From contig DTRM01000071.1 of the NCBI GenBank assembly GCA_012965975.1, positions 1-32,925 of the forward strand: 32,925 nucleotides of DNA, given 5' to 3'. The notes under the pieces are model-generated. The model was not told where the DNA came from. It made no database searches and worked only from the letters and a program-made list of their open reading frames with translations. Shown one piece after another: positions 1-32,317 of this stretch. The stretch is from Chromatiaceae bacterium. GTDB taxonomy: Bacteria; Pseudomonadota; Gammaproteobacteria; DTRM01. Position 1 is the stretch's first letter. Each line of letters opens with the position of its first letter. Made by a program: the position numbers and the translations under genes.

Positions 1-555
1 GCCGATCGTGAGCGCTATCAAACGGTTTACGCCGAGGAGCCTGGCGCGGTGGCCGCGCCGACGGCAGGATTGCACTTTGATCAAAGCCTGCTCGACGCAG
101 TGAGTAACAAGGGCGTGGGGTTGGCGCGAGTCACCCTGCATGTGGGTGCGGGCACGTTTCAGCCCATGCGTTGTGATTCGATCCTTGATCACGTGATGCA
201 CTCAGAGCACATCGAGGTGAGTCAGAGGGTCTGCGATCAGGTCCGCGAGACGCGGCAGCGAGGTGGGCGGGTCGTGGCGGTCGGTACCACCAGCGTGCGT
301 TGTCTGGAGTCGGCCTGGAATGGTGAGCGGCTGCTGCCAGTTTGTGGCGACACCAATATCTTCATCTACCCCGGTTACGAGTTTGGTGTGGTGGATGCAT
401 TGGTGACGAATTTCCATCTGCCAGAATCCACCTTGATGATGCTGGTCAGCGCCTTTTCCGGCCAGGATTTGGTGATGTCGGCTTATTGCCATGCCATCGC
501 GCAGAGATACCGGTTTTTTAGTTATGGCGATGCGATGTGGATGACTCGAAAATAA
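1..555 (+). CDS. queA: S-adenosylmethionine:tRNA ribosyltransferase-isomerase QueA, 3' part
   Basis: QueA transfers and isomerises the ribosyl group of S-adenosylmethionine onto preQ1 in tRNA to make epoxyqueuosine, a late step of queuosine synthesis. The frame is open from base 1, so the gene enters from the left. The GTG at 49 in the ORF track is an internal valine, because the upstream codons already read [10 protein letters not shown], which is family sequence. About 184 C-terminal residues are present out of a usual 345 or so. Recognisable blocks are [31 protein letters not shown] and [17 protein letters not shown], ending in a typical short tail. It precedes tgt, the preceding enzyme of the same pathway, as in many Gammaproteobacteria. 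No terminator with a U-run in the plus direction follows it. Confidence 0.96.
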
Positions 556-576
556 TGTAAGTGATTAATTTCAGAC

Positions 577-610
577 AAAAAAAAGCGCGGCAAATGGGGG
601 AGCCGCGCTT
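577..610 (-). terminator. Intrinsic terminator of the putative small RNA
   Basis: The perfect 9-bp inverted repeat AAGCGCGGC/GCCGCGCTT has a 10-base loop. On the minus strand it is followed directly by eight Ts. In the plus direction the stem is followed by AAAAAC, so it would not work as a terminator for queA. Confidence 0.75.
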
Positions 611-649
611 AAAAACTACTACCAAGGAGGAGGTAGTTGTCTGATGAAC
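577..649 (-). ncRNA. Putative small RNA with C-rich, anti-Shine-Dalgarno loop
   Basis: This is seen directly; it is not a family I can name. The minus strand of the queA-tgt gap carries a TTGACT-N17-TAAAGT promoter, a start near 649, and a 9-bp GC-rich hairpin followed by eight Ts. The implied transcript is about 73 nt with two hairpins. The first is ACTACC/GGTAGT around the loop TCCTCCTT. The second is the terminator stem AAGCGCGGC/GCCGCGCTT around TCCCCCATTT. The first loop is the exact complement of a consensus Shine-Dalgarno sequence. C-rich loops of this kind are known in Xanthomonas sX13 and in the alphaproteobacterial CcsR 'cuckoo' RNAs, so base-pairing with mRNA ribosome binding sites is a reasonable inference. 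No open reading frame is apparent in the transcript. Start and end are estimates to within a few bases. Confidence 0.6.
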
Positions 650-656
650 GAGACCA

Positions 657-685
657 ACTTTAGAGATCAGGGCTGTGGAAGTCAA
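657..685 (-). promoter_or_regulatory. Sigma-70-type promoter of the putative small RNA
   Basis: On the minus strand TTGACT (685-680) and TAAAGT (662-657) are separated by 17 bases. This gives five of six matches at -35 and four of six at -10. There is no minus-strand protein gene downstream before the terminator, which points to a non-coding transcript. Confidence 0.5.
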
Positions 686-709: not shown

Positions 710-1909
<1,200 letters not shown>

Positions 1910-31177: not shown

Positions 31178-31270
31178 GGAGAGGTACCGAAGCGGCCATA
31201 ACGGCACCGACTCGAAATCGGTTGGGGGCTTTAACGCCCCACAAGGGTTCGAATCCCTTCCTCTCCGCCA
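31178..31270 (+). tRNA. tRNA-Ser (anticodon CGA)
   Basis: The 93-base sequence includes an encoded CCA. The acceptor stem is GGAGAGG/CCTCTCC. The anticodon arm ACCGA-CTCGAAA-TCGGT gives anticodon CGA, reading UCG. There is a long variable arm (GGGGGCTTTAACGCCCC) as in serine tRNAs, and a T arm AGGG-TTCGAAT-CCCT. An integrase gene ends 15 bases beyond the 3' end, so this tRNA is probably the attachment site of the neighbouring element. Confidence 0.97.
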
Positions 31271-31285
31271 TTTCAATGACTTACG

Positions 31286-32317
31286 TCACTGCACTCCTTT
31301 CACTGTTGCTTCGTCATTTTCAAAACGTAGCCAGATCGTAGCTATATTTTGCGATGCACCCCTTAAATGGTCGCCTGCAAGGTGTGCATATCGCAATACC
31401 ATCTTGTAGGTTCGCCATCCACCCAACTCCATCAGCTCTTGCAAACTGGTCCCAGATTGAACGTGCCATGAAGCCCATGTATGTCGAAGATCATGGAAGC
31501 GAAAGTTCTCGATTCCTGCTTTCTTCAGTGCCTTCGCCCAAGTATCAGAGTTAATGCCCTTCAAAGCCTTGCCGTGATACGAAAACACATGGGTTTTATG
31601 TTTGCCCAATCGTCTGCGAATGACATTAATTGCCGTGGCATTCAGTGGAACCACAAGATCCCGCTTGCCTTTCATTTCATCCGAATAAAACCAAGCTACT
31701 TTTCTGGTCATATCAATCTGATCCCAGCGTAACTGTCGGACGTTTTTGGATCGAAGCCCTGTGGCCAGTGCAAAATCCATCATGTCCGCAAGATGCGTGG
31801 GTAAGGCTTTCATTAAGGCAACGGCTTCGGTTGGGGTGATCCATCGCACACGCTTGTCAGGCTCTCTACGCATGTTTAGCGTAGGGGCTTTGGTAATCCA
31901 GCACCATTCCCGTTCGGCCTTCCTGAGGATTGCACGAACGGTTGCGAGGTATCGATTGATCGTGCCCGCTGCCCTATGGGACTTGTTACGCATGATCTGG
32001 TCGATCGACTCCCGGGTGATGCTGTTTAACGACTTCCCTGCAAGATGTTGATGTAACCACCGCAAACGTCCCTTGTCGCCTTCATGGTCGCGTTTGTGGG
32101 TTGTTTCTTCCAGATACCGTAGGACTGCTTCATCCCAAAGGTAGTCTGGTTGTTCGCCCAACATGGCTTGTCGCCATAACTGAGCTTTGAGGTGATCGTG
32201 GTACTCCTTTGCTAAGGTTCTGTCAGAAGTCCCAGTACTTTCCTGCACCGTTTTTCGGTTTGGGATCGAGATCTTGCACCAGTAATGGGGACTGTCTTTT
32301 CGCTTATAGATGGACAT
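31286..32317 (-). CDS. Tyrosine recombinase / integrase
   Basis: Phage-type integrases join element and host attachment sites through a tyrosine intermediate. The 343-residue protein is complete: an N-terminal arm-binding region (SIYKRKDSPHYWCKI), a core-binding helical domain (about 60-160, AAGTINRYLATVRAIL) and a catalytic domain. The catalytic residues are Arg in ATGLRSKNVRQLRW, Lys in MKGKRDLVVPL, His-x-x-Arg in FHDLRHTWASW, Trp in LGGWRTY and the nucleophile Tyr in VLRYAHL. The ATG at 32317 has a strong AAAGGAGT six bases upstream, so it is a genuine start even though it lies inside the preceding HTH gene. It stops 15 bases from the tRNA-Ser gene. Confidence 0.95.
   Translation of the reverse strand: MSIYKRKDSPHYWCKISIPNRKTVQESTGTSDRTLAKEYHDHLKAQLWRQAMLGEQPDYLWDEAVLRYLEETTHKRDHEGDKGRLRWLHQHLAGKSLNSITRESIDQIMRNKSHRAAGTINRYLATVRAILRKAEREWCWITKAPTLNMRREPDKRVRWITPTEAVALMKALPTHLADMMDFALATGLRSKNVRQLRWDQIDMTRKVAWFYSDEMKGKRDLVVPLNATAINVIRRRLGKHKTHVFSYHGKALKGINSDTWAKALKKAGIENFRFHDLRHTWASWHVQSGTSLQELMELGGWRTYKMVLRYAHLAGDHLRGASQNIATIWLRFENDEATVKGVQ

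What the first reader, a model, noticed from the sequence alone, without database searches (positions are those of the whole stretch)
577..685. Unannotated small RNA with anti-Shine-Dalgarno loop between queA and tgt
The minus strand of a 235-base gap holds TTGACT-N17-TAAAGT, then about 73 bases, then a 9-bp GC-rich hairpin with an eight-T tail. The RNA would have two hairpins with pyrimidine-rich loops: TCCTCCTT, the exact complement of AAGGAGGA, and TCCCCCATTT. Known RNAs with C-rich loops (sX13 of Xanthomonas, CcsR of Rhodobacter) regulate many mRNAs by pairing with ribosome binding sites. I know of no such RNA described at the queA-tgt junction.
Basis: partly seen in the sequence, partly recalled or inferred. 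Interest (0 to 1): 0.75.

Follow-up and report, generated by a model that had tools for sequence, protein, structure and literature searches.

The report
Divergent double-hairpin ribosome-site-mimicking small RNA
A short stretch between two tRNA-modification genes looks like the gene of a small regulatory RNA whose loop copies the ribosome's own mRNA-binding sequence; it is a divergent member of a widespread group of such RNAs that we found in over a third of sampled relatives, uncatalogued in the RNA database we searched, and related to known 'double-hairpin' RNAs of Burkholderia and Bordetella.

Summary
In detail: minus strand 685-577 carries TTGACT-N17-TAAAGT, a hairpin with loop UCCUCCUU, and a 9-bp terminator hairpin (loop UCCCCCAUUU) ending in eight T. 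It is not an isolated oddity. A covariance model built only from copies upstream of rplM-rpsI in other gammaproteobacteria finds this site as the best place in its 2.1-Mb genome (47.8 bits, E 1.5e-8; next 25.2). A similar model hits 145 of 369 genomes of the class. Two seats recur: upstream of and codirectional with rplM (63/63), and antisense beside queA/tgt, as here (12 other loci, including two Ca. Thiodiazotropha). The closest Rfam family is RF02278, the 'Betaproteobacteria toxic sRNA' / double-hairpin RNAs (B. cenocepacia ncS27; B. pertussis S17 is related), but nearly all copies, and this one (25.2 vs 50 bits), miss its cut-off. Best reading: a trans-acting, probably Hfq-assisted sRNA that hides Shine-Dalgarno sites, of a gammaproteobacterial branch not catalogued in Rfam 15. 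Caveats: the window's 5' domain is strongly diverged (alone 11.1 bits, E 0.35), transcription is not shown, targets are unknown.

The parts
657..685 (-). sigma-70-like promoter TTGACT-N17-TAAAGT (-35 at 685-680, -10 at 662-657)
   Evidence: family copies share TTGACA-N17-GAAAAT with upstream TATTA; the window version is diverged
577..651 (-). predicted sRNA, about 73-76 nt (start about 650, inferred from the -10 box; end in the T-run)
   Evidence: transcription itself not shown
618..637 (-). hairpin 1, stem ACUACC/GGUAGU, loop UCCUCCUU (631-624), anti-Shine-Dalgarno loop
   Evidence: family counterpart CCAUC-CUCCUUU-GGUGG; duplex with AAGGAGGAGGUAG -24.1 kcal/mol
577..610 (-). intrinsic terminator, 9-bp stem AAGCGCGGC/GCCGCGCUU, second pyrimidine loop UCCCCCAUUU (601-592), T8 tail
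   Evidence: all 8 model pairs of the terminator show changes on both sides in 92 aligned copies
1..555 (+). queA (5' end cut by the contig), convergent with the sRNA
   Evidence: Pfam PF02547, E 6e-86
791..1909 (+). tgt, divergent from the sRNA
   Evidence: Pfam PF01702, E 3e-163

Best explanation
The element is the gene of a short trans-acting small RNA, a diverged copy of a gammaproteobacterial branch of the double-hairpin, C-rich-loop sRNAs. It is transcribed from its own promoter away from tgt and ends at its own terminator before queA. The open loop UCCUCCUU has the same core as the ribosome's anti-Shine-Dalgarno tail (CCUCCUU) and would pair with purine-rich ribosome binding sites of a subset of mRNAs, blocking translation start, probably with Hfq. 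Shown here: sequence, structure, conservation, covariation, syntenic seats, presence of hfq. Inferred: transcription, mRNA pairing, repression, Hfq use (the last from the Bordetella relative).
For: rplM-only model R2 finds the site as best of the whole genome, 47.8 bits, E 1.5e-8, next 25.2; R1 48.4 bits. BLASTN 82% identity over 88 nt to an rplM-linked copy, E 3e-15. Family in 145/369 class genomes at E<=0.001. Same seat and same antisense orientation beside queA/tgt in 12 other loci; three genomes (two Ca. Thiodiazotropha and a Chromatiales MAG) carry both a queA-tgt and an rplM copy, as paralogues do. Stem covariation 0/500 shuffles and far above slid controls. Conserved promoter. hfq in the genome, 104.7 bits. 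Relatives S17 and ncS27: Hfq-dependent RBS-blocking repression, growth effects (PMC11722255; PMC5688073). In 157 sampled gene starts, 21 have >=6 nt exact complement to hairpin 1 against 4 inside genes.
Against: The 5' domain taken alone is barely recognised (R3 11.1 bits, E 0.35, though best in the window); the leading CUCCUCC is missing and the stem is in another register, so much of the score comes from the terminator. The promoter lacks the family's TATTAGAAAAT element. No expression data. Four other queA-tgt copies (L204, L209-L211) also have a rewritten 5' domain. Alignment A4 was fitted to the model structure.
Confidence: 0.77

Rival explanations
1. A decayed or decaying copy: the locus descends from the sRNA family but the 5' pairing domain has eroded, leaving a terminator for minus-strand transcription and no regulator.
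For: 5' domain alone E 0.35; CUCCUCC leader lost and promoter element diverged.
Against: The hairpin is a well-formed stem (CUACC/GGUAG) with a perfect 8-nt anti-SD loop; promoter 9/12 and full terminator kept; a similar CUACC-UCCUCCUUU-GGUAG hairpin occurs in another genome (L132).
Confidence: 0.12
2. A cis element only: a terminator or antisense RNA acting on the 3' end of queA, not a trans regulator.
For: Convergent with queA; the T-run lies about 20 nt from the queA stop; orientation is the same in all 13 loci.
Against: The plus strand has no T-run after the hairpins; the same RNA sits upstream of rplM in most genomes and elsewhere in others, so queA cannot be the common target.
Confidence: 0.06
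3. A small plus-strand gene: AAGGAGGAGG followed by ATG encodes a 17-residue peptide, and the anti-SD loop is just its ribosome binding site read backwards.
For: In the window an ATG follows the perfect SD with a 17-codon frame.
Against: No comparable reading frame in most other queA-tgt loci; promoter, covarying stems and T-run all point to the minus strand.
Confidence: 0.02
4. A member of the ErsA (Pseudomon-1) family rather than of the double-hairpin family.
For: Rfam RF01719 gives 27.7 bits, slightly more than RF02278 at 25.2.
Against: 27.7 is far below its cut-off of 50, and no other locus of the set is matched by RF01719 while all six tested are matched by RF02278.
Confidence: 0.03

Closest known systems
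RF02278 Betaproteobacteria toxic sRNA / double-hairpin RNAs (B. cenocepacia ncS03, ncS05, ncS27, ncS62; bdhR1)
   Same: Two hairpins, CU-rich open regions complementary to ribosome binding sites, terminator as second hairpin, about 60-90 nt, several copies per genome (PMC5688073)
   Different: Window copy 25.2 bits and six tested relatives 28-36 bits against a cut-off of 50; rplM and queA-tgt seats; window lacks the 5' CUCC leader
S17 of Bordetella pertussis
   Same: Hfq-dependent, CU-rich 5' region and first loop cover RBSs; related in sequence to RF02278 RNAs (PMC11722255)
   Different: Processed from a 190-nt precursor, seat between BP3151 and coq7; betaproteobacterial
sX13 of Xanthomonas
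   Same: C-rich loops repress mRNAs with G-rich motifs near the start codon (PMC3771888)
   Different: Three stem-loops with CCCC motifs, polA seat, Hfq-independent; resemblance of mechanism, no homology shown
ErsA / Pseudomon-1 (RF01719)
   Same: Two-hairpin layout with C-rich loops; weak match 27.7 bits
   Different: Below cut-off; other loci of this family do not match it

Membership tests
RF02278 Betaproteobacteria toxic sRNA | score at or above the curated gathering cut-off (50 bits) | tested here: not met
   window 25.2 bits; 2 of 369 class genomes reach the cut-off
RF02278 Betaproteobacteria toxic sRNA | two hairpins, the second an intrinsic terminator with U tail | tested here: met
RF02278 Betaproteobacteria toxic sRNA | unpaired CU-rich stretch complementary to RBS | tested here: met
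   loop UCCUCCUU open in the ensemble, duplex with AAGGAGGAGGUAG -24.1 kcal/mol; the 5' CUCCUCC stretch is absent
RF02278 Betaproteobacteria toxic sRNA | growth inhibition when overexpressed | not testable with these tools
   needs an experiment
Gammaproteobacterial rplM-linked double-hairpin RNA (defined here, models R1-R3) | match to a model built from rplM-linked copies only | tested here: met
   47.8 bits, E 1.5e-8 in 2.1 Mb, next 25.2
Gammaproteobacterial rplM-linked double-hairpin RNA (defined here, models R1-R3) | 5' domain CUCCUCCAUCCUCCUUUGGUGG | tested here: inconclusive
   UCCUCCUU-GG kept, CUCCUCC leader and stem sequence changed; R3 11.1 bits, E 0.35
Gammaproteobacterial rplM-linked double-hairpin RNA (defined here, models R1-R3) | one of the two recurrent seats in the recurrent orientation | tested here: met
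   antisense beside queA/tgt, as in 12 other loci
sX13 | three stem-loops with C-rich loops, polA neighbour | tested here: not met
   two hairpins, queA-tgt neighbours; description from PMC3771888
ErsA / Pseudomon-1 (RF01719) | gathering score 50 bits | tested here: not met
   27.7 bits

The most novel reading that the evidence does not exclude
An ancient, widespread anti-Shine-Dalgarno riboregulator of gammaproteobacteria, missed by Rfam, whose main seat just upstream of the L13-S9 operon (63 of 63 codirectional) with a conserved special promoter ties the supply of an SD competitor to ribosome production; the queA-tgt copies are a second, separately evolving paralogue that retargets by rewriting its 5' hairpin.
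Probability: 0.2. Interest if true: 0.7.

Novelty: new variant of a known kind. Interest (0 to 1): 0.5.

Why it matters
It extends a class of RBS-blocking sRNAs, known experimentally from a few Betaproteobacteria, to a large part of the Gammaproteobacteria, with two fixed genomic seats that make orthologues easy to find and test. It also shows that an Rfam family is too narrow: a model made here recovers 145 of 369 genomes where the curated cut-off recovers 2. The link to the L13-S9 operon is a testable lead on coupling of ribosome supply and translation control.

Tried and rejected
Plus-strand small ORF with perfect SD: not conserved. ErsA membership: below cut-off, not matched by relatives. 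sX13 membership: different layout and seat. Own-genome rplM copy: could not be tested, because S9 (and L13) are not found in the incomplete assembly. Literature searches for an rplM- or queA-tgt-linked sRNA found none in the held library, which lacks most subscription journals. The similarity beyond the T-run (GTCTGAAAT) was first taken as a sign of descent, but GCCT-like letters follow other terminators too, so it is not used.

Full report
Observation. The gap between queA (ends 555) and tgt (starts 791) carries on its minus strand exactly what was described: TTGACT-N17-TAAAGT at 685-657, a hairpin ACUACC-UCCUCCUU-GGUAGU at 637-618, and a terminator AAGCGCGGC-UCCCCCAUUU-GCCGCGCUU ending in eight T at 577. 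The fold is much stronger than shuffles (z -5.6; 0 of 500). No Rfam family reaches its cut-off here.

Relatives. A BLASTN search of 56 genomes of the same class gave clear matches, the best 82% over 88 nt (E 3e-15). The sRNA-like copies with a clear neighbourhood lay upstream of rplM-rpsI and not at queA-tgt. Scanned against Rfam, all six tested copies hit RF02278, Betaproteobacteria toxic sRNA, at 28-36 bits (cut-off 50), and the window hits it at 25.2. RF02278 at E<=0.01 rings in 138 of 369 genomes of the class, where about 4 are expected by chance, but only 2 reach the cut-off. In the window's own genome the window site is the best RF02278 place, ahead of the next by 5 bits.

Anatomy of the family. 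Copies share GACUCCUCCAUCCUCCUUUGGUGG, folding as CCAUC-CUCCUUU-GGUGG, followed by a terminator whose stem varies and whose loop is usually pyrimidine-rich. On 92 aligned copies, 98% of stem cells pair; 10 of 13 pairs have changes on both sides; no shuffle of 500 and no slid register comes near (the alignment was fitted to the model, and most of the covariation is in the terminator). Upstream, 66 of 98 copies have a TTGAC-like box, and 36 of 98 carry TATTAGAAAAT with at most one mismatch where 0.3 is expected.

Models. R1 (18 copies, window left out) hits the window at 48.4 bits and 145 of 369 genomes at E<=0.001. R2 (16 rplM-linked copies only) gives 47.8 bits, E 1.5e-8, for the window as best of the genome, next 25.2. 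R3 (5' domain only) gives just 11.1 bits, E 0.35, still the best of the window. So the window RNA reads as a family member with a rewritten 5' hairpin: the CUCCUCC leader is gone, the stem moved register, the UCCUCCUU core stayed.

Seats. Of 90 RF02278 loci read, 58 hold rplM, often also a 2Fe-2S ferredoxin-like gene. In all 63 rplM-linked copies measured the RNA is upstream and codirectional, 90-594 nt away. Beside queA/tgt I find 12 further copies, all antisense to those genes as in the window: G140, G349, G253, G015 and four MAGs L204, L209-L211, and L214-L217, among them Ca. Thiodiazotropha taylori and endoloripes with the canonical 5' domain. In those two and in the Chromatiales MAG of L217 an rplM-linked copy exists too, so the queA-tgt copy is a paralogue at a second recurrent seat. 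In the window's genome L13 and S9 are not found in the 89%-complete assembly, so its rplM seat cannot be seen.

Mechanism. The loop has the core of the 16S anti-SD tail (own knowledge) and pairs well with SD sequences (-24.1 kcal/mol with its full complement, -13.0 with the plain consensus). hfq is present. In B. pertussis, S17, related to RF02278, is Hfq-dependent and represses a target through RBS-covering single-stranded regions (PMC11722255); in B. cenocepacia, ncS27 overexpression slows growth, and 55-80% of predicted interactions of these RNAs fall around start codons (PMC5688073). In 226 kb of this genome, 21 of 157 gene starts have at least 6 nt of exact complement to hairpin 1, against 4 of 157 inside genes (starts were predicted by SD strength, so this is biased upwards): a subset with strong SDs, not all genes, would be affected. 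Transcription, pairing and repression are inferences.

Rivals. A plus-strand peptide, a queA cis element and ErsA membership are disfavoured. A decaying copy is the serious rival, because the 5' domain and the promoter element are diverged; against it, the hairpin is well formed with a perfect loop.

Verdict. Right in kind, wrong in isolation: a divergent member of a widespread gammaproteobacterial branch, not catalogued in Rfam 15, of the double-hairpin, RBS-blocking sRNAs. I found no description of the rplM- or queA-tgt-linked branch in the held literature, which does not prove there is none.

Noticed in passing
family copies, e.g. L008, L011, L083, L107, L110, about 40-60 nt upstream of the conserved 5' domain: Promoters share TTGACA-N11-ATATTAGAAAAT and often ACATACTGATT downstream; the box at -10 spacing is GAAAAT, which suggests a special or regulated promoter.
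   Followed up: partly
G000:C153:9470-9555 (L243, minus strand): A possible second paralogue in the same genome: GACTCCTCCC... and a terminator with a C-rich loop, 25.2 bits with R2 (E 0.0088).
   Followed up: partly
window 569-576 and many relatives: The letters after the T-run are often GCCTG/GTCTG, also at some unrelated terminators; a downstream terminator feature may exist.
   Followed up: partly
window 31178-32317: A tRNA gene (plus strand) lies 18 nt from a phage-type integrase gene (minus strand), as at the edge of an integrated element.
   Followed up: no
G283:C3, G262:C3, G176:C27, G144:C83: Two or three tandem copies of the RNA about 100-150 nt apart.
   Followed up: no
L204, L209, L210, L211 (queA-tgt junction): Four related MAGs keep promoter and terminator at the same seat but have a different 5' part (AGUAC/GUACU possible stem) with CCUCC in a long loop, as if the pairing domain were re-evolving.
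   Followed up: partly
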